Shown here piece after piece: positions 1 to 25,504 of a stretch of DNA of 31,191 bases (its first letter is position 1; the number at the start of each line of letters is the position of its first letter). Below the pieces are notes generated by a model. The model saw only the letters and a program-made list of their open reading frames with translations. It did not search any database and had not been told where the DNA came from. The translations under genes and the position numbers were made by a program. Source of the DNA: a virus. Location: positions 1 to 31,191 of the IMG/VR virus record IMGVR_UViG_3300031236_000029; one strand, 5' to 3'.

Positions 1-2664
1 CGGGCTGCTGCCGTCGTAGGGGTCTCGGCTGCGGTCCGGGCTGGACCCGCTGTAGCTGGCGGTGCGGGCGACGCTGCTCCCGGCGTAGCTGGCGGTGCGG
101 TCGTAGGTGGGCCCGTCGTAGGGGTCCCGGCTGCGGTCGCTGCTGACCGGCAGTATCACCACGTACCCGGTTTCGGTGCCGCTGCCGGTGTCGGTGCCGA
201 CCACAGTGAAAGCCACGTAGCCGCTGTCGGCCCCGGAACCGGTTTCGGCGGCCACGATGTCGACGGCTACCAGGGTGAACTCGGTGCCGCTGCCGGTGTC
301 GGTGCCGGTCACGGCCGCCGCCAGGGCCTGGGTGTCGGTGCCGCCGCCGGTGTCGGTGCCGGTCACGGCGGCGGCCACACCGCCGCTGTCGGCACCCTGC
401 CCGGTCTCGCTGCCGATGAGGGCGGCGGTTATGGTCTGGGCTTCGGTCCCCGCTCCGGTGTCGGCCGCGGTCAGGGATATGCCGGTGGAGGTGTCCGTGC
501 CGGTCCCGGTCTCGGCGGCGGTCACTAGCTGGCCGACGCTCTGGGCTTCGGCCCCGGACCCGGTCTCTGTGTCGGCGATGTTGGCCGCGAGGCTGGCGCT
601 GTCAGCCCCGGTGCCGATGTCGCTGCTGTTGAGGGCAATCCCGGTGGCACTGTCGCTGCCGGTGCCGGTCTCGCTGCCGGGGACGCTGACCGCTACTGCG
701 GTGGTCTCGGCGGCGCTGCCGGTTTCGGTGTCGGTGACCCCGATGACGGTAGGGGTGTCGGTCCCGCTGCCGGTTTCGCTGTCGGCCACTGTGGAGGCGT
801 AGGAGGCCGCTTCGGTGCCGGTGCCGGTGTCGGTGTCAGCTAGGGCGATTGCGGGGCTGGTGTCGGCTCCTGAGCCGGTCTCGGAGGAAGCTACCGCTGC
901 GGTGATGGCGCCGGTGTCGGTTCCTTGTCCGGTGTCGCTGCCGGTGAGGGCGATACTGGCGGCGGTGTCGGCGCCCTGGCCGGTGTCGCTGTCGGTGACC
1001 TGGGCCGTGAGGGTGGATGTGTCGCTGCCGCTGCCGGTGTCGGTGGTGTTCAGGCCGAGGGACGGGTCGCTGTCGGCCCCGGTGCCGGTCTCGGCCCCGG
1101 TCACAGCGGCGGCCACACCGCCGCTGTCGGCCCCCTGCCCGGTCTCCGGGTAGCTGGCTGCGATGGCGGGGTTGGCGTCTGAGCCCGCCCCGGTTTCGCT
1201 GCCGGTGACGTCGGCGGTGAAGCTGGCCGTTTCGGTCCCGGTGCCGGTCTCGGCCCCGGTCACCCCCACGAGGGTGACAGCGTCGGTGCCGGTGCCGGTG
1301 TCGGTGGCGGTCAGGGTGGCTGCGATGGTTCCCGTGTCGGCGCCCGCCCCGGTGTCGGTGGCGGCCACTGTGGAGGCGTAGGAGGCCGCTTCGGTGCCGG
1401 TGCCGGTGTCGGCTACCCCGATGAGCGCCTCGATCGCCGAGTCGGCCCCGGAGCCCGTGTCGGCGGAGCCGACCGAGGCACCCGCTGAAGCGGCATCGAC
1501 GCCCGAGCCGGTCTCGGCTACCTGGCTGACCGTGACGTCGGCGTAGACGATCGAGAGGACCGCTTGAAGCTCGACCGCAACAACGCACATGGTGTTCGAA
1601 GGAGAGAAGGACCAGGAGTTGTTCTGCGCCCCTCCGGTGTTGATGTAGCTGGTCTGCTCATAGGTCGCCCCGGCCGCTTGGAGAGCGAGAGCGGTGAAGC
1701 CCGCTGGCGGTGTGATGGTAGGGACGCTGCCGACGCGTTCCATCGCTGTCGCTATGACCAAGCTCGATGCCAAGGGGGCGGCCGAGAGATCGACGGTCAC
1801 GGGGCTCGCCGTAGCTGGGCCGACAGCGACCGACGCTCCGGGCCCGGCCACGTTGGTCGCATAGAGGAACCGGGCGATCCCGTCGCTGATCGTCGCGGTG
1901 CTCGTCACGGTGACGGTCCCGGCACTGAGCCCGGCCGGACAGACCGACGAGATGAACAGGACGCTCCCGTTGTAGAAGCCCGTCAGGCCGAGGCCGGGCG
2001 TCGACGCGTACCTACTCCACGTAAGGCCCCACCCGCCAGGGGAGGCGATGCTCAGCGACCACCCGGACGCGGAGGCTGACTGGCCGACCGAGACGATCAG
2101 AACCGCTCCGGCTACGGGCGTGAAGCTGGCCGAGACATAGGTGGTGCCCCCGGTCTCGGTCACAACAGCCGCAGCGATAGCCGGGGTCGAGATCGCCGAA
2201 GCCGAAGAGGAGATGATGTCGGAGCCAGAGCCGGTCTCGACTGGGCCCGTCAGGCCGACCGTGCTGGTGATGTCAAGGCCGACTCCAGTCTCGATGTCTC
2301 TGACTGAGGCGGCAACCGAAACAGCCTCGATCCCGGAGCCGACCTCGGCGACAGGGATGGTCACGGAGACGGCCGCGTCCGAGCCGGACCCAGTCTCGAT
2401 GTCTCTGACTGAGGCGGCAACCGAAACAGCCTCGATCCCGGAGCCGACCTCGGCGACAGGGATGGTCACGGAGACGGCCGCGTCCGAGCCGGACCCAGTT
2501 TCGGATGCGTAGACGTAGATGAGCGTGACCGCATCGACGCCGGTCCCGGTCTCGGTGTCGGTGACCGCCAGGTTCCCGGACAGGCCGGTGAACTGCTGCG
2601 GGTAGATGAAAAAGTCGTATGCGTCCGGACCGCCGCCGAACCACGAGGCGTCGATCCCGGTCAT
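1..2664 (-). CDS. Repeat-rich tail fibre or adhesin-like protein (3' end beyond window)
   Basis: The frame is open from the ATG at 2664 to the left edge, at least 888 codons without a stop, so the C-terminus is missing. The start lies 5 nt after the preceding stop and has no clear Shine-Dalgarno. Layout: residues 1-37 unique; 38-168 seven repeat units; about 170-383 a non-repetitive Ser/Thr/Gly/Ala-rich domain, probably beta-rich; 384-841 about 26 further units; then an Arg/Ser/Tyr/Asp-rich tail with repeated DRSRDPYDG and RTASY motifs. Each unit is 17-18 residues and opens with [DE]TGxGx[DE]. No cysteine-rich or enzymatic motif is seen in the repeats. Position after a tail spike and a glycosyltransferase-like gene suggests an extended receptor-binding or surface fibre. 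The repeat could form a beta-solenoid, which is inference. The long plus-strand frames in this stretch are antisense shadows. Confidence 0.85.
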   Translation of the reverse strand, partial: MTGIDASWFGGGPDAYDFFIYPQQFTGLSGNLAVTDTETGTGVDAVTLIYVYASETGSGSDAAVSVTIPVAEVGSGIEAVSVAASVRDIETGSGSDAAVSVTIPVAEVGSGIEAVSVAASVRDIETGVGLDITSTVGLTGPVETGSGSDIISSSASAISTPAIAAAVVTETGGTTYVSASFTPVAGAVLIVSVGQSASASGWSLSIASPGGWGLTWSRYASTPGLGLTGFYNGSVLFISSVCPAGLSAGTVTVTSTATISDGIARFLYATNVAGPGASVAVGPATASPVTVDLSAAPLASSLVIATAMERVGSVPTITPPAGFTALALQAAGATYEQTSYINTGGAQNNSWSFSPSNTMCVVAVELQAVLSIVYADVTVSQVAETGSGVDAASAGASVGSADTGSGADSAIEALIGVADTGTGTEAASYASTVAATDTGAGADTGTIAATLTATDTGTGTDAVTLVGVTGAETGTGTETASFTADVTGSETGAGSDANPAIAASYPETGQGADSGGVAAAVTGAETGTGADSDPSLGLNTTDTGSGSDTSTLTAQVTDSDTGQGADTAASIALTGSDTGQGTDTGAITAAVASSETGSGADTSPAIALADTDTGTGTEAASYASTVADSETGSGTDTPTVIGVTDTETGSAAETTAVAVSVPGSETGTGSDSATGIALNSSDIGTGADSASLAANIADTETGSGAEAQSVGQLVTAAETGTGTDTSTGISLTAADTGAGTEAQTITAALIGSETGQGADSGGVAAAVTGTDTGGGTDTQALAAAVTGTDTGSGTEFTLVAVDIVAAETGSGADSGYVAFTVVGTDTGSGTETGYVVILPVSSDRSRDPYDGPTYDRTASYAGSSVARTASYSGSSPDRSRDPYDGSSP
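142..1515 (-). repeat. Coding tandem array, about 26 units of 17-18 aa
   Basis: Within the fibre gene, units beginning [DE]TGxGx[DE][TAS] follow one another without interruption. Examples of unit openings are ETGSGVDAAS, DTGTGTEAAS and ETGQGADSGG. Degenerate copies keep the Thr-Gly and the acidic residue, for example ETGSAAE. The remaining 9-11 residues are Ala/Val/Thr/Ser-rich and look like one beta-strand. Unit lengths alternate between 17 and 18, and all insertions keep the frame. Confidence 0.85.
2161..2553 (-). repeat. N-terminal repeat array of fibre gene, about 7 units
   Basis: The same 17-18 aa unit as in the larger array occurs here, separated from it by a domain of about 215 residues without repeats. 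Two pairs of units are exact duplicates at DNA level. Some copies open with EVGSGIE rather than ETGSGSD, so units alternate in pairs. Confidence 0.8.
2287..2496 (-). repeat. Exact 105-bp tandem duplication inside fibre gene
   Basis: Bases 2287-2391 and 2392-2496 are identical by eye over all 105 positions. The unit encodes 35 residues, two repeat units of 17 plus 18, so the duplication keeps the frame. Identity ends abruptly on both sides. Absence of any third-position difference points to a recent event. Confidence 0.92.
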
Positions 2665-2669
2665 TTAGG

Positions 2670-3023
2670 TCAGCCCTCGGGCTTCGCCTTCCTGGTGAGC
2701 GCCGCCGCCTTCTTCGGGGCCGCCGCCTTCGCTCGACGGACGGCACGCGGCGGAGTGACAGCGGCCGCCGTGTCGACCTGATTCTGCTTGAACTGCGCTC
2801 GCAGCGCCTCGAACATCACCGGCCATCGGTCCTCCTCGAAGCGGCCCAGATCGCCGACCGGGACCGGGGTGCCGCCGAGGCCGACGTCGCCGACCTTCTT
2901 GCCGGTCTCGATGTTGATGACCTGCGCTATCGGGATGACGGTCCATCCCGTGAGGATCAGGAACTCCGTGTCGGGGTTGGGGACTGGCGGGGCCAGCGCT
3001 GCTGCCTCCTCGGGGGTGGTCAT
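2670..3023 (-). CDS. Small protein with basic Lys/Ala/Arg-rich tail
   Basis: 117 residues. ATG at 3023 overlaps the upstream stop as ATGA and is preceded by GAGAGGA at a spacing of about 7 nt, which supports this start rather than longer readings of the frame. The N-terminal 75 residues are mixed, with a hydrophobic stretch around FLILTGWTVIPIAQVINI and many turns. The last 30 residues (PPRAVRRAKAAAPKKAAAL and following) resemble a histone-H1-like tail that could bind nucleic acid or an acidic partner. I do not recognise a family. It lies between a glycosyltransferase-like gene and the repeat fibre, so a virion or fibre accessory role is possible. Confidence 0.7.
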   Translation of the reverse strand: MTTPEEAAALAPPVPNPDTEFLILTGWTVIPIAQVINIETGKKVGDVGLGGTPVPVGDLGRFEEDRWPVMFEALRAQFKQNQVDTAAAVTPPRAVRRAKAAAPKKAAALTRKAKPEG

Positions 3024-3529
3024 GTGGAGATCCTCTCTGGTCGGCCATCCGGCGTGAGCGACCACTGTGCCACTTCGAGGTAGTGGTGGTCGTGGCCGGT
3101 GCGGCCGTGGACGTGCGGGGTCTCGCCTCGCTGGGCCAGGCCCCCACAGACCGCCTCGTCCAAGCCTGTCCACGGCGTCGGATGGAGAGCGACGGTCGGG
3201 TGCCTCTCGATCAACGACTGACGGAACCGGACCAGGCCGAGGCCGAAGGCCAGCCAGGTCGACGTCTCGTTGTGGCACTGGTACTCGTAGCAGCACCACG
3301 GCTTGGGGCACTCCTCGAAGGAGGCGCTGGCGTCGGGAGGGACCACGACGTCGTGCTCGATGATGACGAAGTCGCGTTGCGCCTGCCAGAGCGACCGGAA
3401 CGCTTTCCAGTAGGCGTAGTCGTCACCCGACACGTCAATGCCGCTATGCACCAGACCGAATGAGGCGGCGGCCTCAGCGAACGTCGCGTCGCGGGCTCTG
3501 CTCGTGTAGGGCAGCATGACGTGGGTCAC
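3020..3529 (-). CDS. Glycosyltransferase-like protein (GT-A type, putative)
   Basis: 169 residues from a GTG that overlaps the stop of the tail spike gene (GTGA). Residues 52-64 read RDFVIIEHDVVVP, which resembles the nucleotide-sugar and metal-binding strand of GT-A folds, with the acidic residue at D60. It is followed by ECPKPWCCYEYQC (73-85), a hydrophobic LGLVRF strand (97-102), W120-x3-D124, and a His-rich end (H139, H141, H146, H148, H149). This arrangement recalls a family of small phage and environmental proteins that I associate with glycosyl transfer, but no activity is shown here. Coupling to the tail spike suggests it might decorate a fibre or another virion protein. It is short for a free-standing enzyme. 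Confidence 0.5.
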   Translation of the reverse strand: MTHVMLPYTSRARDATFAEAAASFGLVHSGIDVSGDDYAYWKAFRSLWQAQRDFVIIEHDVVVPPDASASFEECPKPWCCYEYQCHNETSTWLAFGLGLVRFRQSLIERHPTVALHPTPWTGLDEAVCGGLAQRGETPHVHGRTGHDHHYLEVAQWSLTPDGRPERIST

Positions 3530-6500
3530 GCGACCTGCCGCCAGTACACCATCTGTGGGGTGACGGTCTGCGAAGTCGAGCCGGTGATGATAGTTAGCTC
3601 GATGAACAGAGCGCCGGTCAGCGTGTTGAGGGTCGCGAGCGTGCCGGTCCCGGCAGCGAAGGCCGTGCCCGGAGCGACGGCGCTCTGGCTGTTAGCGAAC
3701 CCTACGCCGGTACCCGTCGCGGAAGTGTTGATCATGGCGAACGTGCCGACGATGGTCCCGGTCGTAGCGTTGATCGTTCGGACGGTGAAGGCGGCCTCGA
3801 TCATGAAGGCCGAGGGGACAGCGGTCGGCGTGGCCGAGTAGGTCTGGAGTACCGCGTCGCCCGCGACGGTCCCGGCCGAGCCGCATCTCAGCCTGACCAC
3901 GTTGGCTGTCGTCCCGGCCGCAGCCGCGTATGTGCACCAGGCGACGCACTCGTAGGTCGCACCGGCCCGGAGCGTCCCGGCTGGCATGACGAGTTGGGTG
4001 ATGATGGTCTCGGTCGTCGTGAAGGGCGTGCCTGCGGCGACGGTCGGCGTCGGGGCGGTCGGCTCGCCGTTGTAGGTCCACGCTCCTGCGCCGACGAAGC
4101 AGCCGGTCCCGACCACCACGGCTGGCTCGCCGTTGGCGATCTGCTGGTGGTCCCAGTAGCTCTGGCTGGCAGCGAAGGCGTAGGAGTAGTCGTTCGTGCC
4201 GCGCAGTCGTGCGCCGTTCGTGCCAGGCGAACCGCCGTAGAACTGCCAGTTGCGGCCCGATCCCGCCGCTCCGAGAAGCGATGTCGCTCCCTGGATGTCG
4301 ACGCCGTATCCGGCGCCGGAGGAGTTGACGACCAACCCGAACACCGAGCACGAGTCGCTGTTGCCTGCGTAGATGCCACCACCGTTGGCCATCTCGGCGA
4401 CGAGGTTCTCCATCGTGTGGAGGCAGGAGTTGGCGGTGGCCGAGCCGTGGTGGACCATGAAGCGGGCGTGGTTCGAGTCGGCGTGGCGCACGAGCGCGCC
4501 GGAGAACATGAGCGCAGAGGGGATCGCCGAGCCCGACCCCGGGCCGCTCGAAGTGTTCGGGTACGTCGCGAGGCACGTGACTCCGGTCAGGGTCGTGGTG
4601 TTGGCGCCGCCCGTGTAGCAGCACAGGTAGTCCATGACCGTGCCCGTCACCTGGTCTATGGCCTGCACCGTCAGGTAGCCGGTAGCGGGCCAGTTCGTCG
4701 TAGCGATCGCCATCGCCAGCGACGAGGCGGACAAGGCGCTCACGTTCGTGGTGGCCGTCGTCGTGGTGTGCGGGTAGAGGAAGATGGCGCCGTTCGTTGC
4801 CAGAGCGCCGAAGGGGTTGCCGATGGTCGTCACGCCCGTGAGGGTCGTGCCCGTCGCCCCGGTGTAGACGAGGGTGGCGTTCCCTGCCGACGTGGCGACC
4901 AGGGCGTAGCCGCCGCACGTGCCGGCGTTGTTCGTGTTGAGGTTGACCGTGCCCGCCCCAACGAAGGAGCTGAGCGCCACGCCGTTCGATCCGGCCGCAA
5001 TCGAGTTCGTCAACACGATCGCCGACTCTGCTCCGCGACCGCGTACGTTCTTGATGTGGCCTCGGGTGCAGTCGTGCGCCTCGCCGAGCGATCCGTTCTT
5101 CAAGACGTTGAAGGCGTAGTTGAAGCGGATCGGGTCCATCACGAAAAGGTTCTCGATGTCGGGCTCGTGGCAGGAGATGAGGTCGACGCCGTTGGCGATA
5201 CCCACCCCCGAGCTTGTGTTGCCTCGGCAGTCGACCCAGAAGTCGTGGAGACGCAGTCCGACCAGCGCCGTACCCGTCGACGCGTTCGTCCACGGCATGG
5301 CTCGAATCACGCCGCAGTCGCTTCCGTTCGTGCCCGGCGTGAGACACCAGGCCGACGCCCCCGTCGAAGCGTTGACCGACGTCGACGCAGCGAAGCACGT
5401 CCCTCCGCCCTGAGCGTAGCTGCCGGTGTCAGTCTGCGAAGAAGCCGCGTCGCCCTGCAAGCTGAAGCCACCCGTCGAGATCCAGATCGGGTAGGTCAGC
5501 AGGTAACTCCCAGCCGGGCCGTAGACGGCGCCGCCCGGGTAGGTCGCCTGCGGGCCGAGGAGGCTACCGGAGAGGATGATGCCTCCGCTGTAGCCCGCCG
5601 TCGCCGAGACAGTGCAGGACGTGAGTGTCGTCGAACCGCCGCCCGCTCCGTAGGCGATAAGGATCGGGCCCGTGGTCGTCTGGCCGATGAGCGTGCCCGA
5701 CGCGGCGAGAGAGTTAGCGGTGACAGAGATGGAGAACGTGCCGGTGGCAGTGACGTTGGCGGTCGTCGTCACGATCTGCGCCGCGGTGACCCCGGCGCCG
5801 AAGTAGCTCATTGCCATCGCGTTGTAGATCGCCAACGTCGAGTCGTTCGTCCTCGTCGGGTCGGCTCCGAAGTCGATGATGTTGTAGCGGTTGAAGGTCG
5901 GTGTCCAGCCCGCAGAGCGGTAGTCGTGCTGCTGGCCGAGGACCGGCGTCGTCGAAACGATCGGATAGTCCTGAAGCCCGGTGACGGTGACAGCACCACC
6001 GGAGGCCATCGTGGCGTCTTGGCTCAGCGCCACCGCCACCCACGCGCTGCCGTTCCAGTCGAGGATCTGGCCGCCGACTGTCCCGGCCGGAACGGTCCCG
6101 GTGATGGTCGCCGTCGACACCGCTGTCAGCTGGCCCGCCGCGTTGTAGGTGATGACGGGCACGACCGACGCCGAGCCGGTGGGTCCTCCGGCCCCGACGC
6201 CTGTGGCGGTGATCGTCGTGGCGAAGGTGCCCGTGCCGGAGCCGGTGACGGGGCCGGTGAGGGTGATGGTCTGATCCCCGGTGTTGTTGCCGCTGATAGT
6301 CCCCGATGACGGCACCCAAGCTGAGGAGCCGGTGCTCCAGACGAGCGGCTGGTTGTTCGTGGCCGGAGCGGTCGCCGACACGGCGTGGCCCTGTAGAGCG
6401 ACGACGGTGGCAGCGTTCGACCCGGTGGCGATCGTGACGTCGGCGGTGATGGCGGGCCGGCTCAGCTGGTTGCCCGTCTTCGTGATCGTGGCGTCGACGG

Positions 6501-8034
6501 TGATCTCGCCGGCGCCCGAGAACTGCGTCCAGAGGATCGCCGTGGTCCCGACCGTGTACGGGCCTTCGCCAGCGACGACGAAGCCAGCCCCGGTATTGGA
6601 CGTCCCGCCCTCGCAGAACGTGAAGGCTCCCGGGACTTGCGAGCCGGTGCTCATGTCCGTCGCCCGGGTGACCGTCAGGTTCGTGACGTTCGAGACCACG
6701 GTGTAGATGCCGTTGGCTGGCTGCGTCGTGTTCGGCGAACTCCCGGCCCCGCTCGCTGCGGGAGCGTTCTTGATCAGGATGCGGTCGCCGTTGGCGGGGC
6801 TGCTGCCGTCGAGAGTCGTGCCCGAGATGACCGTGACCGACCCGGCCGCGATGGTGTAGGTCTCGGCGCCGGTCGTGGCCCACTGCACCGAGGGCTTGAC
6901 CGACAGCCCGGTCGAGACCGCGTCGACGTAGCTCTTGATGGCGAAGTCCGTCGCTGCTGTCGGCGTCGCCCCGCCCGTGATCTTGAAGCCTGCGTTAGAC
7001 CAGGCCGCCAATGGGGCGTGGAGAGTCGCTATCTGGTCCAGCGTTCCGGTCTCGATCGTCGGGTTCGCTGCCGCACCGCCGACAGTGATTGAGGCGTCTC
7101 CAGCTGCGACCGTCGAGTGGGTCCACGTCTGAGCGGTCGAGTCGATCGTCAGCCCGGCAGCCGGAGCGGTCAGCATCCAGACGGTGCTGGCGTAGACCGT
7201 GCCGTTGCCGACCAGGACGGTGCGGCCGCGCTTGACCACGCCAGCGGTCGGGTACTCGTGTGGCCGGGTGAGCGCGGCGGCTGCGCCGTTCCAAGTCCAC
7301 ACGCCGTTCTGCGTGTTGGTGGACTGGTTGGTCAGCAGGACCTCGTCGTTGGTCTGAAGGGTGTAGCCGTCGAGGGTCGCTCCGGGCGCTGCGATGTTCA
7401 CGTTCGCCACCGCCACAGCTGCGACGGCCGACAGCGTCGCGATCGACAGGTTGAAGCGCGACGAGCCAGCGTCCGACAGGTCCGACAGGTTGTTGGCCGG
7501 GATGAGGACCGTCTCGGGCACCCACGCCGAGCCGTTCCAGCCGAGCACCTGGTTGGTCGCCGCTCCGCTTAGCGTCCCGAGGGCCGTCCCGTTGATCTTC
7601 GAGACAGTCGGGTTCGGGTATGCGCCCGACAGGTCGCCGCCTGCCACACCGCCGATCGTCGACAGCGCCAAGCCGGACGACGAGTACACCGTCCATCCAC
7701 CGGCAGCCTCGTAGGACGCCCACCCGCCAGCGGGGATGATGAACAACGCCACCTGATTCGAGGCGGCCGTGCCGTCGATGTAGACGGCAACGGTCTGCGG
7801 CGTCGAGCCGTTCGTGTTGAACAGCAGAATCGACGACAGCTGAGCCGACAGACCAGACGTCGGCGAGTACATCGACCCGGCCGACGACCCAAGCTGGCCC
7901 TGAGCGAGAACCTCATAGGCGTTGGCGATAGGGGGAGTCCCGGTGGTGACCAGCAGGCCGCTGATCGTGTAGTTGACGGTCGCTGCGTTGGTCGCCGACC
8001 CCTCGATGGCTTGGCTGGTGCCGAGCGTCAGCAT
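3526..8034 (-). CDS. Tail spike/tail fibre with right-handed beta-helix (pectate-lyase-like) domain
   Basis: 1502 residues, starting at ATG 8034, 10 nt after the upstream stop. The N-terminal half is low-complexity, Thr/Ser/Ala/Gly-rich shaft material with motifs frequent in phage tail fibres: GGDLSGAYPNPTV near residue 130 and three copies of a W-x-GSAWV-like module. From R716 the sequence RYNIIDFGADPTRTNDST matches the opening of pectate-lyase-3-type beta-helices, and the following 550-600 residues have the Gly/Asn/Ser-rich turns and hydrophobic strands expected of the helix. The last 180 residues, starting near TPFTTTETIITQLVMPAG, look like a beta-sandwich tip or trimerisation domain. Likely role: binding and perhaps degrading host surface polysaccharide. 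The 771-aa frame on the other strand is a shadow. Confidence 0.85.
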   Translation of the reverse strand: MLTLGTSQAIEGSATNAATVNYTISGLLVTTGTPPIANAYEVLAQGQLGSSAGSMYSPTSGLSAQLSSILLFNTNGSTPQTVAVYIDGTAASNQVALFIIPAGGWASYEAAGGWTVYSSSGLALSTIGGVAGGDLSGAYPNPTVSKINGTALGTLSGAATNQVLGWNGSAWVPETVLIPANNLSDLSDAGSSRFNLSIATLSAVAAVAVANVNIAAPGATLDGYTLQTNDEVLLTNQSTNTQNGVWTWNGAAAALTRPHEYPTAGVVKRGRTVLVGNGTVYASTVWMLTAPAAGLTIDSTAQTWTHSTVAAGDASITVGGAAANPTIETGTLDQIATLHAPLAAWSNAGFKITGGATPTAATDFAIKSYVDAVSTGLSVKPSVQWATTGAETYTIAAGSVTVISGTTLDGSSPANGDRILIKNAPAASGAGSSPNTTQPANGIYTVVSNVTNLTVTRATDMSTGSQVPGAFTFCEGGTSNTGAGFVVAGEGPYTVGTTAILWTQFSGAGEITVDATITKTGNQLSRPAITADVTIATGSNAATVVALQGHAVSATAPATNNQPLVWSTGSSAWVPSSGTISGNNTGDQTITLTGPVTGSGTGTFATTITATGVGAGGPTGSASVVPVITYNAAGQLTAVSTATITGTVPAGTVGGQILDWNGSAWVAVALSQDATMASGGAVTVTGLQDYPIVSTTPVLGQQHDYRSAGWTPTFNRYNIIDFGADPTRTNDSTLAIYNAMAMSYFGAGVTAAQIVTTTANVTATGTFSISVTANSLAASGTLIGQTTTGPILIAYGAGGGSTTLTSCTVSATAGYSGGIILSGSLLGPQATYPGGAVYGPAGSYLLTYPIWISTGGFSLQGDAASSQTDTGSYAQGGGTCFAASTSVNASTGASAWCLTPGTNGSDCGVIRAMPWTNASTGTALVGLRLHDFWVDCRGNTSSGVGIANGVDLISCHEPDIENLFVMDPIRFNYAFNVLKNGSLGEAHDCTRGHIKNVRGRGAESAIVLTNSIAAGSNGVALSSFVGAGTVNLNTNNAGTCGGYALVATSAGNATLVYTGATGTTLTGVTTIGNPFGALATNGAIFLYPHTTTTATTNVSALSASSLAMAIATTNWPATGYLTVQAIDQVTGTVMDYLCCYTGGANTTTLTGVTCLATYPNTSSGPGSGSAIPSALMFSGALVRHADSNHARFMVHHGSATANSCLHTMENLVAEMANGGGIYAGNSDSCSVFGLVVNSSGAGYGVDIQGATSLLGAAGSGRNWQFYGGSPGTNGARLRGTNDYSYAFAASQSYWDHQQIANGEPAVVVGTGCFVGAGAWTYNGEPTAPTPTVAAGTPFTTTETIITQLVMPAGTLRAGATYECVAWCTYAAAAGTTANVVRLRCGSAGTVAGDAVLQTYSATPTAVPSAFMIEAAFTVRTINATTGTIVGTFAMINTSATGTGVGFANSQSAVAPGTAFAAGTGTLATLNTLTGALFIELTIITGSTSQTVTPQMVYWRQVA

Positions 8035-8444: not shown

Positions 8445-9104
8445 TCAGGATTGTGTGATGGTCACGGTGAAGGCCCATGCGCTCGCTGAGGTCTTGGTGC
8501 CCAGGTTGACGCCTTTGTGGTTGAACATGTCGCCGCTGGCGATGGCGGCCGTGCTGGAGGCGCCCCCTTTGTCCATGGCCCATTCGTTCCACACAAAGTT
8601 GGCGTTCCCGCTGGCCACGGTGGCGACCGCCGTCAGGACGGCGCTGGCGCTGTTGTTGCCGCCGCTGGGGACGCTGGGGTAGGTGTTGTCGCAGGCGTTG
8701 CAGTAGCGGTGGCTGGCCCCGGTGGCGGCGGCCAGGTCGGTGTCGCCCACTGCAGCAGTGGGAACGCTGCCGCCGCCGTCGCCGACGCACAGGCGGGCGC
8801 TGCCGTTGGCGTAGTTGGTGCCTCCGGCGCTGACGGTGGTGCCTATCAGCAGCCGCAGCATGGCGTTGAGGCCGGTGTACACCTCCAGGTTGTGTTCGGC
8901 CTCGGTGACGCTGTACGGGCGCAGCCCGGCCGCGACCATCTGGGCCTTCTGGACCCGCTGGCAGCGAACCGCCAGGCGCTTCTCCCGGGGGAGCAGCAGG
9001 GCTCGGGGGCCCAGGTGCGGCCGGACCAGTCCGGCTCGCACCGCTTCTTCGATGTCAGCCTGATGGAACCTTTCGACCACCAGGCTGGCCGTCCATTCGC
9101 TCAT
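8445..9104 (-). CDS. Phage structural protein, putative tail-associated
   Basis: 219 residues from ATG 9104, 6 nt after the upstream stop. N-terminal 65 residues carry charged helices (EWTASLVVERFHQADIEEAV; VRCQRVQKAQMVAAGL). The rest resembles a type of actinophage virion protein that I know from its motif order: GSARLCVGDGGG, then DLAAATGA, then a C-terminal NFVWNEWAMDKG and an ending with alternating beta-strands (WAFTVTITQS). Two cysteines sit in YCNACDN. The family is usually found next to head or tail genes but its exact role is not known to me. Alternatives are a baseplate or a fibre attachment protein. Confidence 0.6.
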   Translation of the reverse strand: MSEWTASLVVERFHQADIEEAVRAGLVRPHLGPRALLLPREKRLAVRCQRVQKAQMVAAGLRPYSVTEAEHNLEVYTGLNAMLRLLIGTTVSAGGTNYANGSARLCVGDGGGSVPTAAVGDTDLAAATGASHRYCNACDNTYPSVPSGGNNSASAVLTAVATVASGNANFVWNEWAMDKGGASSTAAIASGDMFNHKGVNLGTKTSASAWAFTVTITQS

Positions 9105-17765: not shown

Positions 17766-18011
17766 TCAGGGTTCGGGCGGTCCCTTCGGGGTGGCCTTCG
17801 GTGCAGTGTCGATGGGTGGCGGCCAGCCCGGCAGCGGGAGGGCGGGCTTCATCTGGGCGACTATGGCCGCCGCCACCATCTGGGTGCGGACCCGGGCCAT
17901 CTTGATCGGGTTTTCCGGTCTGGCTCCGCTGGCCGGGCGCTTGCCCTTGGCCCGGGCGATGACGTCGGCGGTCCAGCGGTTGTCGGCCCGGGGCGGGGTC
18001 GGCTTGGTCAT
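17766..18011 (-). CDS. Small basic, Pro-rich protein after portal fusion
   Basis: 81 residues. ATG at 18011 overlaps the portal stop (ATGA). The N-terminal half is basic (KPTPPRADNRWTADVIARAK; ARPENPIKMARVRTQ), followed by a hydrophobic, Ala-rich stretch around MVAAAIVAQM and a Pro-rich end. No family recognised. Coupling between portal and protease suggests a head-assembly accessory protein, but this is only positional. Confidence 0.6.
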   Translation of the reverse strand: MTKPTPPRADNRWTADVIARAKGKRPASGARPENPIKMARVRTQMVAAAIVAQMKPALPLPGWPPPIDTAPKATPKGPPEP

Positions 18012-21000
18012 ATGAGGCCGCCTTCCCGGGCCGTCTGAATGATGGCCTGGTACAGCTGGGCGTAGCTCATCTGGCCGTCATCGAGCCCGGCCGGTATCAG
18101 CTGGTTGACCCGGTTGATTATGGCCTGGTCGGCCTCGCTGTAGTACGGCCCGGTCCACTCGTCTGAGCCTATCGGCTGGACGGCGGCGGCTTCGGGCTCG
18201 AGGGCGGTTAGCTCGGCTATGTAGTCGGCCTCGGTCATCTCGTATGGCGGGGTGCCGACACCGGGGCCGCTGGCGTACCCGAATATCTGTATGGCGTCGT
18301 CAGCACCCTGCTCGGCGTTGACCTGGGCCACCATGCCCACGCCTAGCGATTTGTCTCCGGCCCCGAACATGGCGTCCAGGTCGTAGGGGCTCTCCAGTAT
18401 TTTGTTGTAGCTCCAGCCGCCGTAGCGGGCCAGGTTGATCTGTTTGCCGTTGGCCAGGGCGTCGGCCAGGTCGACCATGCGGGTGTACTCCACCCAGGCC
18501 GACATGGGTTCGGTGCCCCGGCCGATGGCGTCCTCAAGGTCGGGTAGCAGCCGCTTGAGTTTGTCCTCGACCTCGGAGGGCTGCATGAGGGCGTGTTCCT
18601 CGGCGCTGCGAGATTTGGCGACGTTCTCCCGCTCGACCCAGCCGTTGGTGCGCAGGCGGCTGCGTTCCGCCTTGCTCATGTCGCTCCAGTACCAGTCCTG
18701 CTGGGCGTCCCGGGCGATGAACCCGATGCGGTCCATTTCGTTGTTCTGCAGCCAGCCTCGGGTGTCGTAGGCCAGCTGTTTGGCTCGGGCCTGAATGTCG
18801 GCCCGTATCTTGTTGTAGGCCGCCTTGGCCGCTTTCAGGTCCTCGTCGGTGACGTCGCCGGTGGCGTCTACCCAGCCCATGCGGGTGGCGAACTCGGCCG
18901 GGGTCTCGGTGCTGGCCGCGTACGCTTCCGCTTCGGCCTCCGCTTCGGCCTCCGCTTCGGCCGGGCCCACGCTCACGCCTTCGGCCTCGGCTTTGACCTC
19001 GATGCTCTGCGCCAGGGCGTCCTCCGGGGTGGCGGCCAGGGTCTTTAGGTCCTCTAGGGCCTGCACGTCGGCCGGGTCGGGTTTGGCCGCCGAGTACAGC
19101 CGCACGATCCACTTGTCCTTCGGCAGGCCGAACGGGCGGGGCGCTCCGGGCGGTATGAGCTTCTGGACGGTGTACTTGGCGCCTTTCGGGAGCACGGTCT
19201 CCTGTAACTCGGAGCGTTCCGTGTAGCCCAGCGGGTTGGCGATGGCACCGATGATGCCGTTGCCGTCCTCGATGACGACTATGGCCTGCACCTGGCGGGC
19301 GCCTTCGCCTTCGAGGTCGCTCTCGGCGTACTGGATGGCCACGTCCTTGGAGCCGGTGGTGGAGGTGAGCCGGTTCAACTCGGTGCGCCCCGGCTTCCAG
19401 GCGGCCCGCAGGTCGTCCTCGCTGGCGTAGCTCTCGCCCCGGAACACCGCCTTCCACGGCAGCGCCTGCCCTTTGGCCTCGGTCTGGATGAGGTTGGCCC
19501 ACTGGGTCAGTTCGTCCTTCTCGTCTGCGGTCAGGACGTGCCCGTTGTCGTAGTTGCGCATCTTTTCCGGCATGGTGCCGTCGAGCGCAGAGCGGAAGTC
19601 CGGTTCCCGGTAGGCCCACTGTTCCCACACGTCGCTGTTGACGATGCTGACGGCGGCCTCGTCGTCGTGGTAGCCGACGTGCGCCAGTTGCTTCCAGGTC
19701 GTGGCCGGGTCCGGGGTCGGCTCGGGCGGCTCCACCGGCAGCACCGTGCCCTCGGCGCTGGCGGGCGTCCCCATCTCGGCTTCGCCCGGCGCCTGGGCCT
19801 GCATCTGGGCCAGAGCCTGCTCCATGTCAGGGGTTTCGGTGCCCTGGCTTTCGCCTTCCGGCCCGACCAGGATCGGGATCAGATCACACGAGCAGCCCGG
19901 GTGGTCTCCGGGGAACGGGGTGTCGGTGTCAGGGAAGCCGTCGTAGCTGGCCCCCCACTCGAACTCGCTGGGCTCGGCCCGTATCTCGCCGTCGAGGTCG
20001 AGGTGGGGTTGGAACTCGCTGCGGACCCCGGCGCCGTACTCCCACTGGTAGCCCTCGGTGCTGCCCCCGGCGTCCTCTAGCACGCCCATCACCTGCGGGC
20101 CGGTGGCTATCCCGCCGACGGGGTCGCCGTCGCCGTCGGTCACGGGGCCGCCGCTTATCTCGGCCCAGGCGCTGGCGCTCAGCCCTTGGCTGACCATGGT
20201 GCCGCCCTTGGGTATTACCCCTCCGGCTACGGCCAGGGCGGCCCGGACCAGGTTGGCCGGGATGAGGACGGTGCCGTCCTGCTCGCCGGGCTCGGCTCCG
20301 GGGGCGGGCTCGTACAGGCGTTGGGCCGCCAGGGCCTGCAGGTTCTCGGTCAGCCAGTCCTTGGCCCGGTCGACGTGGGCGGCGTGGTCGGTGTCCATCT
20401 GCTCCCGGGTGGCCGGGGCTATCGGCCCGACTACTTTCTCGACCGCGGTCAGGGCCCGCTCGTAGCCGCCGTCCATCCACATGGCGATGGTCTCTACCGC
20501 CGGGCCGAAGGCCCCGTCCAGCAGGGCTTCGTCGCTCATCCCGGTTTGGGCTACCACCGCCCGGCCCAGGGTGGCCGCGATGGCGGTCGGGTGGGCGTTG
20601 ATGATGGCCGTGTGCATCAGGTTCTGGCCTTCGCCGGGGTCGCCGTACACGCCCTTGCGGGCCACCTCGACCCGCTTCAGTCGGCCCTTTATGCGGTTCC
20701 CGGCCCGCTCTAACCCGGTGGCCATGGCGTTGTCCAGCCGGGCGGTTATACGGGACCGCAGGTCCCGGTCCACCCCAGCCAGGAAGATACCGAGTTTACG
20801 CCAGGCGTCCGGGCCGGGCCGGGCCGCGGCGGTGAGCGGGCCGGGGCCTAGGGCCCGGGTGGCCTGGGTCGGCAACGGCGGCGGCGGTGTCGCTGGCGCT
20901 CCGGCCGGGGCCTGGACGGGCAGGGCGCTCACCGGGCTGGTGTCGTCGAGCACTCCGGCCGCCGGGCCCGGTATCTCGATGTCGGGGAAGATGGTGGCCC

Positions 21001-23521
21001 GGAGTATCTGCCCGAGGATGGTGGGGTCCATGCGGGGGGCGTTCAGCACCAGGCGCAGGAGCCGCTCAATGTCGTCGGGGGCGTCCTCCTCGCTGTAGCC
21101 CAGGTACCGGCGGTAGGCCTGGTCGCTGATGAGCATGTCCTTGTGGGCGGTCGGGGCCTGCTCGGCCACGTCAGGCTGCAGGATGACGTCGGCGGCGTCG
21201 AACCACACGAAGATGGTGCGGGCTATCTCGGGGTCGACTCCGGCTTCCTCCAGGGCCCACTGGAAGTAGCCGCCGGTGATGGCGTCGCACACCAGCACGG
21301 CCCGAGGTTCGATGTGGTCATCGAAGATGCTGCGCCGTATCTGCAGCTGGTTGTTGAAGGTGGTATTAAGCGAGCCGGTCGTGGTCTCCACCGGCATGTT
21401 CAGCCCCCGGCCGATACGCAGGATTCTCTGCTCTATGCGGGCGTCGAGCGTCGGGTCCATGCCCCGGTCCAGGCTGATGTGGGCGACGGCCTTCAACACT
21501 TCGGCCGGGCCGCGCACCACGAGAGGGACGACGGCGCTGGCTGAGCCCTCCTCCTGGATGGGGGTGATCATGGCTTCGGCCAGTTCGGCGTCGAACGGGT
21601 CGTCGGTCTCCTCGCCGTCGCCGCCGTCGCGGGTCGGGTCGACGCTCCCGAAACTCAGTTCGCTGGGCATCAGCAGGATGCCGTTGCTGAGTCGGCTCTT
21701 GCTCGAAGCCCGTATCTCTCGGCTCAACAGCAGCAGGGCTTCTATCTCGGCCAGCACCTTGCGCATGGCGCAAGTGGCGAGCTCCGAGAACCTCGGGTGG
21801 CGCTCCCAGATCCGTATAACCAGGTCGGTGTCGGGGATCGGGTCGAGGACCTTGACTCCGGGTCCCCGCCGGAGGGCGAAGCTGTCGCCGTGGATGACCA
21901 GTTCGTCCACGCTGCGGACCTGCCAGTCCTCCACGTCATTCGGGCTGGGCGCCGGGAAGGTGTCGGGGTCGTTCGGGTCGTAGTCCTCGTCGGGGTCGGG
22001 TAGCTCCGGGTTCTCCAGGTGGCCGTGCAGATACAGTTCGCCGCACACCTCCAGGTTGAGGCTCAACTCGCGGACGATGGCGCTCTGGCCGCCCTGGATG
22101 CTTCTCAGCCGGGCCAGGGTGTCGGTGGCGATCTTGGCTATCTCCGGGCTGATCTGGGCTTTCTCGTCGTCCACGGCGACGGGTGCCTCTTTGGTGTCGG
22201 GCCGGACGGCCGGGTAGAGGCGCAGCTTGCTCATCAGGTTGGCTATGAAGGTGGTCGTGTATGCGACCTCACCGCAGTTGCCGGTGTAGAAGACGGTCCC
22301 GTTGCGGCGGGCCAGCCAGGTGTGGTTGGCGGTGGTCGGGCACCAAACGGTGCCGGTGTAGGCGGTCTGTTCCCGGCGGCATTTCCCGACCCATGCCGTT
22401 GTCCGCTGGCCGATAGTCAATAGCCAGCGGTCCTCGGTGGCGTCTTTGTGGAGTCTCGGGGTTCGGCCCGAAAGGATGACGGCCATTTCGAGGGCGGCTA
22501 GGCGGTCGCGTTCGGCTTGGCCTATTACGGTGGCGCCGCTGGCCCCGCGGTGCCCGTCGGCGTCGATCGATACGTTGATGAACAGTTCTAGCTGGGCGGC
22601 TGTCAGCGCCATCACGAACTCGGGGCGTACGTGCTTGTTGGGGGCTAGCGCCAGGATCGTGTCGGAAGCTGTCTTGTTGAGCTTGAAATGTGAGATGCGG
22701 CTCCCGGCCGGACGGTGTTCCCGCCAGGCCGGGTTCGGGTTCGGTCTGCGTCCGGCTCCCAGCGAGGCCGATTCGTGTCCGAAGACGTCTGTGAGCACGG
22801 CTCGGATACGGGCCGTGTGGCCTGGGTTGTGAGCCCATGACTGGTAGATGGTCACTCGTCCTCGAGGGATGGTGCCTTCGGTCCAGAACCAGGCCATCAC
22901 CTCCACTAGCGCATCCGAATATTTCGCTTCGGTGGGCAGGTCGGCACACGGGGCGGCCGTGCGGAACCGGTCGTGTGGGGCCAGGTCGGCCGAGGTGGCC
23001 CACATCTCGGTATAGAGATAGTTGCTGGTGCGGCGCTCGACGTACCAGCGGTGGTCGAGCGTCGAGAGCGAGGAGTGGGACTGGTTTTCCATCGCCATCA
23101 TCGGTCTGTTTTCGACGGCGATCCGGGTGACCCGCTGGACCGGCTGCCATTCGCTGCGGGCCGTGTCGGTGTTCAACGTAAGGACGATGTCGCCTGGCCG
23201 TAGCGTGTCGTGGCGCTCCCAGCCGCGTTCGGTCAGTATCTCGGTGTCGTCGCTGAGGCACTCGTCCCAGTAGTCCCAGGCTTCGGTCTGCCAGGCCTGA
23301 CGGCGGCGCCGGGTGTTCTCTATGGCCCGCCGGTCGTGCATGTTGATGCGGGCGGCGCTGGCCACGAAGGCGTTGGGTACGCCGTCGGCCCGGCCGTAGG
23401 GGTGGTGTCCGTTGGTGCCCGGTTCGGCCAGCAGCAGGTCGCCCTCGTCGTCGGGGGGGGCGGCGTTCCCGGCTGCCTCGCGGGCCCGGCGTTCTTTGGG
23501 GGTTTCCGGTCCGGCTGGCAC
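18008..23521 (-). CDS. Portal - MuF-like - ADP-ribosyltransferase fusion, interrupted by an intein
   Basis: 1837 residues (1509 after splicing), from GTG 23521 directly after the DUF1360 stop. Layout: portal 1-87 and 416 to about 870 (AWDYWDE joined to CGEVAYTTTF; DRGMDPTLDARIEQRILRIG; PVETTTGSLNTTFNNQLQIR); Pro-rich linker 870-900; MuF-like head protein about 905-1217, ending in the diagnostic PGDHPGCSCDLIP; ADP-ribosyltransferase-like domain about 1275-1460 (VFRGE with R1361; LTSTTGS 1385-1391; ELQETVLPKGAKYTV from E1438); an Ala-Glu repeat 1521-1533; and an unrecognised C-terminal region of about 300 residues. Portal forms the ring through which DNA is packaged. MuF proteins usually sit inside the head. 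The transferase may act on host proteins after injection, which is inference. No frameshift or stop separates the parts. Confidence 0.88.
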   Translation of the reverse strand: MPAGPETPKERRAREAAGNAAPPDDEGDLLLAEPGTNGHHPYGRADGVPNAFVASAARINMHDRRAIENTRRRRQAWQTEAWDYWDECLSDDTEILTERGWERHDTLRPGDIVLTLNTDTARSEWQPVQRVTRIAVENRPMMAMENQSHSSLSTLDHRWYVERRTSNYLYTEMWATSADLAPHDRFRTAAPCADLPTEAKYSDALVEVMAWFWTEGTIPRGRVTIYQSWAHNPGHTARIRAVLTDVFGHESASLGAGRRPNPNPAWREHRPAGSRISHFKLNKTASDTILALAPNKHVRPEFVMALTAAQLELFINVSIDADGHRGASGATVIGQAERDRLAALEMAVILSGRTPRLHKDATEDRWLLTIGQRTTAWVGKCRREQTAYTGTVWCPTTANHTWLARRNGTVFYTGNCGEVAYTTTFIANLMSKLRLYPAVRPDTKEAPVAVDDEKAQISPEIAKIATDTLARLRSIQGGQSAIVRELSLNLEVCGELYLHGHLENPELPDPDEDYDPNDPDTFPAPSPNDVEDWQVRSVDELVIHGDSFALRRGPGVKVLDPIPDTDLVIRIWERHPRFSELATCAMRKVLAEIEALLLLSREIRASSKSRLSNGILLMPSELSFGSVDPTRDGGDGEETDDPFDAELAEAMITPIQEEGSASAVVPLVVRGPAEVLKAVAHISLDRGMDPTLDARIEQRILRIGRGLNMPVETTTGSLNTTFNNQLQIRRSIFDDHIEPRAVLVCDAITGGYFQWALEEAGVDPEIARTIFVWFDAADVILQPDVAEQAPTAHKDMLISDQAYRRYLGYSEEDAPDDIERLLRLVLNAPRMDPTILGQILRATIFPDIEIPGPAAGVLDDTSPVSALPVQAPAGAPATPPPPLPTQATRALGPGPLTAAARPGPDAWRKLGIFLAGVDRDLRSRITARLDNAMATGLERAGNRIKGRLKRVEVARKGVYGDPGEGQNLMHTAIINAHPTAIAATLGRAVVAQTGMSDEALLDGAFGPAVETIAMWMDGGYERALTAVEKVVGPIAPATREQMDTDHAAHVDRAKDWLTENLQALAAQRLYEPAPGAEPGEQDGTVLIPANLVRAALAVAGGVIPKGGTMVSQGLSASAWAEISGGPVTDGDGDPVGGIATGPQVMGVLEDAGGSTEGYQWEYGAGVRSEFQPHLDLDGEIRAEPSEFEWGASYDGFPDTDTPFPGDHPGCSCDLIPILVGPEGESQGTETPDMEQALAQMQAQAPGEAEMGTPASAEGTVLPVEPPEPTPDPATTWKQLAHVGYHDDEAAVSIVNSDVWEQWAYREPDFRSALDGTMPEKMRNYDNGHVLTADEKDELTQWANLIQTEAKGQALPWKAVFRGESYASEDDLRAAWKPGRTELNRLTSTTGSKDVAIQYAESDLEGEGARQVQAIVVIEDGNGIIGAIANPLGYTERSELQETVLPKGAKYTVQKLIPPGAPRPFGLPKDKWIVRLYSAAKPDPADVQALEDLKTLAATPEDALAQSIEVKAEAEGVSVGPAEAEAEAEAEAEAYAASTETPAEFATRMGWVDATGDVTDEDLKAAKAAYNKIRADIQARAKQLAYDTRGWLQNNEMDRIGFIARDAQQDWYWSDMSKAERSRLRTNGWVERENVAKSRSAEEHALMQPSEVEDKLKRLLPDLEDAIGRGTEPMSAWVEYTRMVDLADALANGKQINLARYGGWSYNKILESPYDLDAMFGAGDKSLGVGMVAQVNAEQGADDAIQIFGYASGPGVGTPPYEMTEADYIAELTALEPEAAAVQPIGSDEWTGPYYSEADQAIINRVNQLIPAGLDDGQMSYAQLYQAIIQTAREGGLI
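19142..19699 (-). other. ADP-ribosyltransferase-like domain within portal fusion
   Basis: Residues about 1275-1460. The pattern fits the R-S-E type: aromatic-Arg-Gly in WKAVFRGES (R1361), a Ser-Thr motif in LNRLTSTTGSKDVAIQYA, and an acidic motif followed by LPKGAKYTV, as in EXE-LLP-x-G-x-KF of known toxins. The exact E-x-E is not present: the Glu residues are E1435, E1438 and E1441, and the residue two before E1441 is Leu. Activity is therefore uncertain. Confidence 0.65.
22277..23260 (-). mobile_element. Intein with LAGLIDADG homing endonuclease, class 3-like (WCT) signature
   Basis: 328 residues, C88 to N415 of the portal fusion. Block A starts CLSDDTEILTERGW. Block B is STLDHRWYV, with T154, H157 and W159 (position B:12). 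Block F is TVWCPTTANHTW, with C394 at F:4. Block G is FYTGN followed by C416, with T413 at G:5 and N415 as last residue. W159, C394 and T413 make the Trp-Cys-Thr set of class 3 inteins, yet Cys is kept at position 1. The penultimate His is replaced by Gly. Endonuclease motifs LVEVMAWFWTEG (E215) and FINVSIDADGH (D322) look intact. Flanks WDYWDE and CGEVAYTTTF join into a continuous portal sequence. AT-rich patches (for example near 22920) suggest a composition slightly unlike its host gene. Confidence 0.93.
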
Positions 23522-24349: not shown

Positions 24350-25504
24350 TCAGTCGGCTGCTGCCAGCCACAGGTCTTTGAGGATGGCCTTGCCTACAAT
24401 GCGCAGGGCGTCGGCGTGCTGGTGGCCTGCCGCCCAGGGCGATCCCGGCTGGGCCGGGTGGCCGCTGGGGCCGCACCGGACACAGGGCCCGGCGTGAACA
24501 CGCTCGGCTGTGATGGCTCGGCGTTCCTCGTACACCTGTCGATACGGCCACGCAGCCGCCGCCACCGTGGGTTCCGGCCCTGCGATGGGCTGCGTGGCCG
24601 AAAGATTCCCATCAGCCGGTTTTCCCATGGGTTCCGGATCGACGCTGGGCTGGTGGGAAGAGGTCGAGCCCAGCGGGGGGGTTTTGGGTTCCGTGCGCCC
24701 GCTGGCTGGGCGAGAGGGGTCCTGGTCCGGGGATTGCTTGGGTTGCGGGTGGGCGCTGGGACCAGGAGGGGTCTCGCTCAGCGGCTGTTCTCTGGGTTGC
24801 GAGCTGACACTGGCTGGGCGAGAGGGGTCCGGACGGTGTCTGGCCTGCCGAGGGGTCGTGCGGCCGGGTTCCTTGATGGCGCTCTCGGCCAGGAGATGGG
24901 CGAGCATTTTGAGCGTCGGGTTCCCGAGGGCGAATAGCTCGTCGGCGGTCATCCCTTTCGTCGCCCGCCCGGGCCGTCCGTGGCCGCAGTACTGCCATAG
25001 CTCACCCACGGTGCGCTCGAATGGCGGGTCGGGCACCAGCTTGCGCTCGTCGCCGCTGCCCTCCCAGTGGGACGGGGTGGCGATGCGGGGGTGACCCAGG
25101 TGACCTAGGAGCCGGGCCAGCAGGTCGATACCGATGCCCGTCGAATCGGCCTGCCATTGTTTCACTCCTGGCGGTGCGGCCCGCCGGTACTGGCGGCGCA
25201 GGCCCAACCGGATGCGATGCTCGGCGGCCTCGGCCTCGGCTAGCTCGGCCGCGAAAATGTCGGGGAACACCGGGGCCCGCTCGATCCGGTTGGCTAAGCG
25301 AATCCGGGCCACCTGGGCGTCATGAAACATCTCGGCCCAGACCTTGAGAATGCGGTACTCGGTCAGGTCGTAGTTCACAGGTCGTACGCCCGAGGCGGCG
25401 GATGCCTGGGTTGCGCCACTCCTATGGCCTCGGGCGTACGTGGTCCCCGAAGGGCCGGAAGCCGTATGGGTTCCGGAAACTCTCTGGGCCCGTCGGGGGA
25501 TCAT
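24350..25504 (-). CDS. IS110-like helix-hairpin-helix domain protein (putative DNA-binding)
   Basis: 384 residues from ATG 25504, overlapping the upstream stop (ATGA), with GGAGG 4 nt upstream. Residues 1-45 are low-complexity. Residues 46-110 are helical and charged. Residues 113-212 contain KQWQADSTGIGIDLLARLLG, HPRIATPSHWEG, RTVGELWQYCGHG and GMTADELFALGNPTLKMLAH. This matches the helix-hairpin-helix half of IS110/IS116/IS902 transposases (GIG, G-x-P, L-x-x-Y-x-G) as found in stand-alone actinobacterial proteins. No DEDD catalytic domain is seen, so transposition is unlikely. Residues 213-325 are Pro/Ser/Gln-rich and disordered. The end has CVRC and a His-rich turn, perhaps metal-binding. 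Confidence 0.6.
   Translation of the reverse strand: MIPRRAQRVSGTHTASGPSGTTYARGHRSGATQASAASGVRPVNYDLTEYRILKVWAEMFHDAQVARIRLANRIERAPVFPDIFAAELAEAEAAEHRIRLGLRRQYRRAAPPGVKQWQADSTGIGIDLLARLLGHLGHPRIATPSHWEGSGDERKLVPDPPFERTVGELWQYCGHGRPGRATKGMTADELFALGNPTLKMLAHLLAESAIKEPGRTTPRQARHRPDPSRPASVSSQPREQPLSETPPGPSAHPQPKQSPDQDPSRPASGRTEPKTPPLGSTSSHQPSVDPEPMGKPADGNLSATQPIAGPEPTVAAAAWPYRQVYEERRAITAERVHAGPCVRCGPSGHPAQPGSPWAAGHQHADALRIVGKAILKDLWLAAAD
25383..25440. repeat. Perfect 14-bp inverted repeat, 30-nt loop, inside coding region
   Basis: Arms 25383-25396 (cgtacgcccgaggc) and 25427-25440 (gcctcgggcgtacg) are exact reverse complements, 30 bases apart. Both lie in the 5' part of the 384-aa gene, in its low-complexity N-terminal coding stretch. 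No U-run follows, so it is not a classic terminator. It could be a protein-binding or recombination site, or a chance result of Arg/Gly-rich codons. Confidence 0.6.

What the first reader, a model, noticed from the sequence alone, without database searches (positions are those of the whole stretch)
1..2664. Long open frame without stop: 33-unit [DE]TGxGx[DE] repeat fibre
A gene of at least 888 codons fills the left edge on the minus strand, built of 17-18-residue units around a non-repeat domain. Because both its stop and much of its sequence are unusual, it could be overlooked. The regular unit suggests a solenoid or a long flexible stalk; the acidic residue in each turn could bind Ca2+.
Basis: partly seen in the sequence, partly recalled or inferred. 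Interest (0 to 1): 0.6.

Follow-up and report, generated by a model that had tools for sequence, protein, structure and literature searches.

The report
Phage tail-fibre gene with DTGxGxD repeats
The left edge of this virus fragment carries a real, truncated gene for a long repeat-built surface fibre of a tailed phage; the same unnamed 17-19-residue repeat recurs in dozens of unrelated phages, including the 'minor tail proteins' of many cultured mycobacteriophages, so the gene is one more member of a widespread but undescribed fibre family.

Summary
Confirmed: the minus-strand frame 2664-1 is open to the contig edge (888 codons) and holds 33 units of [DE]TGxGx[DE], spaced 17/18 residues, in blocks of 7 and 26 around a ~224-residue non-repeat domain. 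Shuffled protein gives 0.2 motifs on average, at most 3. Coding is supported by GC3 of 86% and by motif conservation relative to synonymous change.
It is not a curiosity of this phage. DNA-pattern scans of IMG/VR and bacterial genomes gave 99 loci with such arrays, 61 non-redundant. Isolated phages carry it too: mycobacteriophage 'minor tail proteins' (Phrann gp21, Taquito gp27, Curiosium gp29), Rhodococcus REQ1 gp64 and, degenerate, Bacillus SP-15. In two loci the array is fused to the distal tail protein Dit. A small conserved gene (window 8445-9104) lies on the same strand near 43 of 61 arrays.
Best reading: the beta-rich stalk of a modular virion fibre or receptor-binding protein, grown by 35-residue (two-unit) duplications, in a fibre/glycosylation hotspot. 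Fold and Ca2+ binding remain unproven: AlphaFold pLDDT is 54-60, and the RTX membership test is not met. The kind is known; the repeat has no Pfam or NCBIfam name.

The parts
1..2664 (-). Repeat-fibre gene, 888 codons, 3' end cut off by the contig edge
2554..2664 (-). N-terminal leader (residues 1-37, MTGIDASWFGGGPDAYDFFIYPQQFTG...), no relatives found in the held loci
2188..2553 (-). Array 1: 7 units (residues 38-159)
2285..2503 (-). Recent two-unit (105 bp, 35 residues) tandem duplication, 99% identical, inside array 1
1516..2187 (-). Non-repeat domain (residues 160-383), no family or relative found
139..1515 (-). Array 2: 26 units of 17/18 residues (residues 384-842), arranged largely as 35-residue dyads
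1..138 (-). Start of a different short-repeat C-terminal tail (SDRSRDPYDG, RTASYSGSS), cut by the edge; complete relatives end a median of 71.5 residues after the start of the last unit
8445..9104 (-). 'GVGDS' protein (phrog_23653/phrog_5417, unknown function): conserved neighbour of the arrays in other phages
3526..8034 (-). 1502-residue virion structural protein (hits PHROG head-decoration and structural families); tailspike-like by eye
3020..3529 (-). 169-residue protein, glycosyltransferase-like by eye only (no family hit); homologues lie beside arrays in L220 and L228

Best explanation
The gene encodes a surface fibre (minor tail or receptor-binding type protein) of a large actinophage-like tailed phage. 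The DTGxGxD units form an extended, beta-rich spacer that holds receptor-facing or glycan-facing domains away from the particle. The length of the spacer is tuned by tandem duplication of 35-residue two-unit blocks, and its flanking domains are exchanged freely between phages. Shown here: the reading frame, the repeat, conservation of the motif, recurrence in many phages, fusion to Dit in two loci, and linkage to the GVGDS gene. Inferred: presence in the virion, role as a stalk, beta fold. Speculative: Ca2+ binding at the paired acids, and glycosylation of the Ser/Thr-rich units by the neighbouring enzyme.
For: 33 in-frame units, far beyond chance, with the motif conserved relative to synonymous change. 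The neighbourhood is a late operon with terminase, portal, capsid, tail gene and a structural protein. 61 non-redundant array loci were found. Arrays lie beside head-tail adaptor, capsid and terminase genes. Two arrays are fused to Dit, with Pfam SPP1_Dit and Sipho_tail above their cut-offs. Isolated phages: 167 records matched at E<=1, 151 of them Mycobacterium, and every listed mycobacteriophage match lies under an annotated minor tail or hypothetical protein. Phrann gp21, Taquito gp27, Curiosium gp29 and REQ1 gp64 were read by translation and hold the units; Phrann gp21 and REQ1 gp64 join them to Gly_rich_2 domains. The GVGDS gene lies near 43 of 61 arrays, always on the same strand, with a median distance of 1.05 kb. 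The closest phages with a fetched locus have other fibre-like and sugar-modifying genes there and no array, as expected of an exchangeable fibre.
Against: No virion proteomics or microscopy. The window protein itself has no sequence match in PHROGs, Pfam, NCBIfam or the PDB, and its non-repeat domain has no relative; it is linked to the annotated tail proteins only through the repeat. Arrays occur in several genomic positions (minor tail cluster, beside head-tail adaptors, before terminase), so head fibre versus tail fibre is not settled. Both structure models are low confidence.
Confidence: 0.8

Rival explanations
1. The array is a Ca2+-dependent RTX-like beta-roll: each 17-19-residue unit is one turn of a solenoid with a single TGxGxD calcium loop.
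For: T-G-x-G-x-D-x-hydrophobic fits GGxGxDxUx (PMC2174480) except for the first Gly. Acids at positions 1 and 7 persist in 73% and 79% of degenerate units against 2.7% elsewhere, more than Gly3 (54%) or Gly5 (63%). Models are all-beta. RTX-like proteins with 20-residue TGxGxD units also came up in the pattern scan (L119).
Against: Position 2 is Thr/Ser, not Gly. Position 7 is Glu in 15-31% of units. There is no second nonapeptide per unit. No RTX Pfam match appeared even at E<=1. Weak fold matches are not to beta-rolls with any confidence.
Confidence: 0.25
2. The array is a trimeric fibre shaft in which each unit gives one beta-strand and a glycine turn, comparable in principle to the triple beta-spiral.
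For: Hydrophobic residues alternate at 9, 11, 13, 15 and 17 of the 18-residue unit. The second model gives one long strand per unit. A monomer prediction would be expected to fail for an obligate trimer.
Against: The unit is 17-19 residues, not 15, and the hydrophobic positions differ from the c, e, g, k, m pattern (PMC3150272). The 35-residue dyad is not expected from a single-repeat shaft. Trimers could not be modelled here.
Confidence: 0.3
3. The array is an intrinsically flexible, glycosylated low-complexity linker without a defined fold.
For: The window units are dominated by Thr, Ala, Gly, Ser and Asp. Model confidence is low. Outside the motif the units drift at pN/pS about 1.1-1.2. Sugar-enzyme-like genes lie in the locus and in relatives, and mycobacteriophages are known to glycosylate capsid and tail tube proteins (PMC12363180).
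Against: The spacing is strict and the hydrophobic alternation is conserved across the family. The lag-2 similarity in several arrays argues for structural constraint. No family model identifies the neighbouring gene as a glycosyltransferase.
Confidence: 0.3
4. The open frame is a chance product of a GC-rich DNA repeat and is not translated.
For: The region is 72% GC and repetitive.
Against: GC3 signature, motif conservation relative to synonymous sites, a start 5 bases after the upstream gene's stop, and the same protein repeat encoded by unrelated DNA in many phages.
Confidence: 0.01

Closest known systems
Mycobacteriophage minor tail proteins of phrog_416 (Phrann gp21; Taquito gp27 and Curiosium gp29 by the same architecture)
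   Same: Same 17-19-residue DxGxGxD unit, virion gene cluster, non-repeat domain attached
   Different: About 6-7 units only, a short N-terminal segment and a C-terminal Gly_rich_2 domain; last of the minor tail genes before lysis; no sequence match to the window outside the repeat
phrog_1696 ('major tail protein', profile of 2079 positions)
   Same: Contains the repeat: the L159 protein matches at E 3e-195 and the L211 protein at 2e-12
   Different: The window protein itself does not match it
Rhodococcus phage REQ1 gp64
   Same: Array followed by a different short-repeat tail, as in the window; Ser/Thr-rich units
   Different: Gly-rich domain at the N-terminus; lies two genes upstream of the terminase gene
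RTX beta-roll (GGxGxDxUx nonapeptides)
   Same: TGxGxDxU loop with conserved acid and hydrophobic position
   Different: One loop per 17-19 residues, first Gly replaced, Glu allowed, no Pfam match
Triple beta-spiral fibre shafts (adenovirus, reovirus sigma1)
   Same: Short repeats with alternating hydrophobic residues and a Gly turn in a virus fibre
   Different: 15-residue consensus with other hydrophobic positions; no sequence relation shown

Membership tests
Phage minor tail / fibre protein | Encoded in the virion structural gene region | tested here: met
   Operon with terminase, portal, capsid and tail gene; neighbours of other arrays are adaptors, capsid, terminase
Phage minor tail / fibre protein | Shared sequence with annotated tail proteins | tested here: met
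   Repeat unit shared with minor tail proteins and fused to Dit in L171, L212; for the window this holds for the repeat only
Phage minor tail / fibre protein | Present in the particle | not testable with these tools
   Needs virion proteomics
phrog_1696 | Profile match | tested here: not met
   Window protein has no PHROG match at E<=0.01
RTX beta-roll | Tandem GGxGxDxUx nonapeptides | tested here: not met
   Position 2 is Thr/Ser; period 17-19 with one motif; Glu at position 7 in 15-31%; no Pfam match at E<=1
RTX beta-roll | Ca2+-dependent folding | not testable with these tools
   Needs biophysics
Triple beta-spiral | 15-residue repeat, hydrophobic at c, e, g, k, m, Gly/Pro at j | tested here: not met
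   17-19 residues, hydrophobic at 9, 11, 13, 15, 17
Triple beta-spiral | Trimer | not testable with these tools
   No multimer prediction available

The most novel reading that the evidence does not exclude
The DTGxGxD array is an undescribed fibre-shaft fold used across tailed phages of several bacterial phyla, stabilised by metal or hydrogen bonds between paired acids, built from 35-residue dyads, and assembled with the GVGDS protein as its dedicated partner.
Probability: 0.25. Interest if true: 0.65.

Novelty: new member of a known kind. Interest (0 to 1): 0.42.

Why it matters
A phage repeat seen in dozens of unrelated lineages, with no Pfam or NCBIfam entry found here, is easy to miss, and low-complexity filtering is a likely reason: searches with the window protein and several other arrays found nothing in isolated phages, while one array query found 167 records. 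Naming the repeat and its conserved neighbour would help annotate receptor-binding proteins in actinophages, including those considered for therapy. The question whether it is a new fibre fold becomes directly testable in cultured mycobacteriophages.

Tried and rejected
tblastn of the window protein, of L024, L020 and L165 proteins, and of the non-repeat domain against isolated phages: no match; masking of low-complexity sequence is the likely reason for the arrays. Relatives by capsid in IMG/VR: none; relatives by terminase succeeded but show no array in the fetched regions or record searches, so the missing 3' end could not be read from a relative. PDB chain 9e5c_0q matched the array profile at E 6.8e-17, but its best single stretch is E 0.014 with a bias larger than the score: a composition artefact. 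Foldseek matches to FapC, CsgA and ice-binding proteins have TM-scores near 0.13 and are not usable. Six-residue DTGGGG runs (L013, L022 and others) and RTX-type or 20-residue proteins (L119, L060, L130) from the pattern scans were set aside as different things. No paper describing the repeat turned up.

Full report
Observation. The minus-strand frame from ATG 2664 to base 1 has no stop in 888 codons. The window is the whole virus record, 31191 bases, classed as linear and so possibly a fragment. The missing stop is therefore the contig end, not a biological oddity. The protein has a 37-residue leader, 7 units, a non-repeat domain of about 224 residues, 26 units, and the start of a different short-repeat tail. 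The motif count is 33, against a shuffled mean of 0.21 and maximum of 3. GC3 is 0.86 in this frame. Between units, the motif has pN/pS 0.33 (17-residue units) and 0.67 (18-residue units); the rest of the unit has 1.1-1.2. These values compare paralogous units whose synonymous sites are near saturation, so they are a guide only; with the frame statistics they show that the array is a translated protein feature.

Unit anatomy. Over 493 distinct units from other loci, the 18-residue consensus is D-T-G-x-G-x-[DE], followed by hydrophobic positions at 11 and 15 (76% and 83%) and weaker ones at 9, 13 and 17. The acids and glycines are partly fixed by the search pattern, so a second test was made. 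In 78 degenerate units located without using the acids, acids stood at positions 1 and 7 in 73% and 79%, against 2.7% at other positions; Gly3 and Gly5 stood in 54% and 63%. Window units alternate 17 and 18, and the part outside the motif is more alike at a distance of two or four units than at one or three (6.8, 10.1, 7.0, 11.6). The same even-lag pattern shows in L159, L015, L183 and L257, but not in all arrays. A 105-bp duplication at 2285-2503, 99% identical, shows growth by two-unit blocks.

Distribution. A DNA pattern for two units, scanned through IMG/VR and bacterial genomes, brought 106 loci with at least four regularly spaced motifs; seven were other repeat types, leaving 99, or 61 after removing near copies. 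Isolated phages carry the repeat: tblastn with the L159 array at E<=1 hit 167 records, 151 from Mycobacterium. At that threshold some may be chance. Phrann gp21, Taquito gp27, Curiosium gp29 and REQ1 gp64 were read by translation and do hold the units; SP-15 has a degenerate form. No Pfam or NCBIfam model covers the repeat; PHROG phrog_1696, called 'major tail protein', does in some members.

Context. The window operon runs terminase, portal, capsid, tail gene, GVGDS gene, a 128-residue gene, a 1502-residue structural protein, a small glycosyltransferase-like gene, a small gene, and the repeat gene. The GVGDS gene is phrog_23653, unknown function. Its homologues lie near 43 of 61 arrays, all on the same strand, 38 upstream, median 1.05 kb. 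Of 44 loci scored as lacking an array, seven also have it, and all seven show short or degenerate arrays on inspection. Many of the 18 arrays without it have little stored flank on the upstream side. Neighbouring genes elsewhere include head-tail adaptors (phrog_442, phrog_195) and a major head protein by profile, and terminases by eye. In L171 and L212 the array is fused to Dit, above Pfam cut-offs. Other domains joined to arrays include Laminin_G_3, fn3 and Gly_rich_2. The nearest phages by terminase (56-61% identical) have other fibre-like genes and sugar enzymes at this place and no array; those gene names are by eye.

Structure. Two AlphaFold runs, one on window units and one on a more hydrophobic family member, gave all-beta models at pLDDT 54 and 60, pTM 0.46 and 0.47. 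They disagree on strands per unit. Foldseek found nothing usable in the PDB; among predicted viral proteins the best match is an uncultured phage protein (E 6.7e-5), and a mycobacteriophage minor tail protein ranks eighth at E 0.013. Beta structure is a reasonable guess; the fold is not known.

Mechanism. The most likely role is a spacer in a virion fibre: repeated, expandable, with exchangeable end domains. A tail position is favoured by Dit fusion and by the minor tail cluster; head-fibre attachment is not excluded. Complete relatives end a median of 71.5 residues after the start of the last unit; in the window 64 such residues are already present, so the true end is probably close.

Verdict. 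Observation confirmed; fibre reading supported; solenoid and Ca2+ readings open. New member of a known kind, interest 0.42.

Noticed in passing
8445-9104: GVGDS protein (phrog_23653, unknown function) is a conserved neighbour of the arrays in other phages; in SP-15 and LIS04 it lies just after the baseplate genes.
   Followed up: partly
3020-3529: Glycosyltransferase-like gene by eye, no family match, with homologues beside arrays L220 and L228.
   Followed up: partly
18008-23521: Very large 1837-residue ORF whose portal match covers only residues 415-955; a neighbouring 892-residue ORF also hits portal and maturation-protease families.
   Followed up: no
24350-25504: ORF with a PHROG 'transposase' match (E 4.5e-38) between portal and terminase genes.
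   Followed up: no
L363, L364: Related phages carry at this place a 654-residue protein with another repeat, and genes that look like sugar-nucleotide aminotransferase, ketoisomerase and glycosyltransferase.
   Followed up: no
L273: An 8-kb IMG/VR contig encodes a terminase identical to the window's; it does not reach the left edge.
   Followed up: no
L208, L146, L211, L020, L173, L248, L214: Arrays are often followed by other short C-terminal repeats (NRTYVVPAQ, KRSVTFAM, SDHPAFRVT, SFSWNT), a second layer of repeat families.
   Followed up: no
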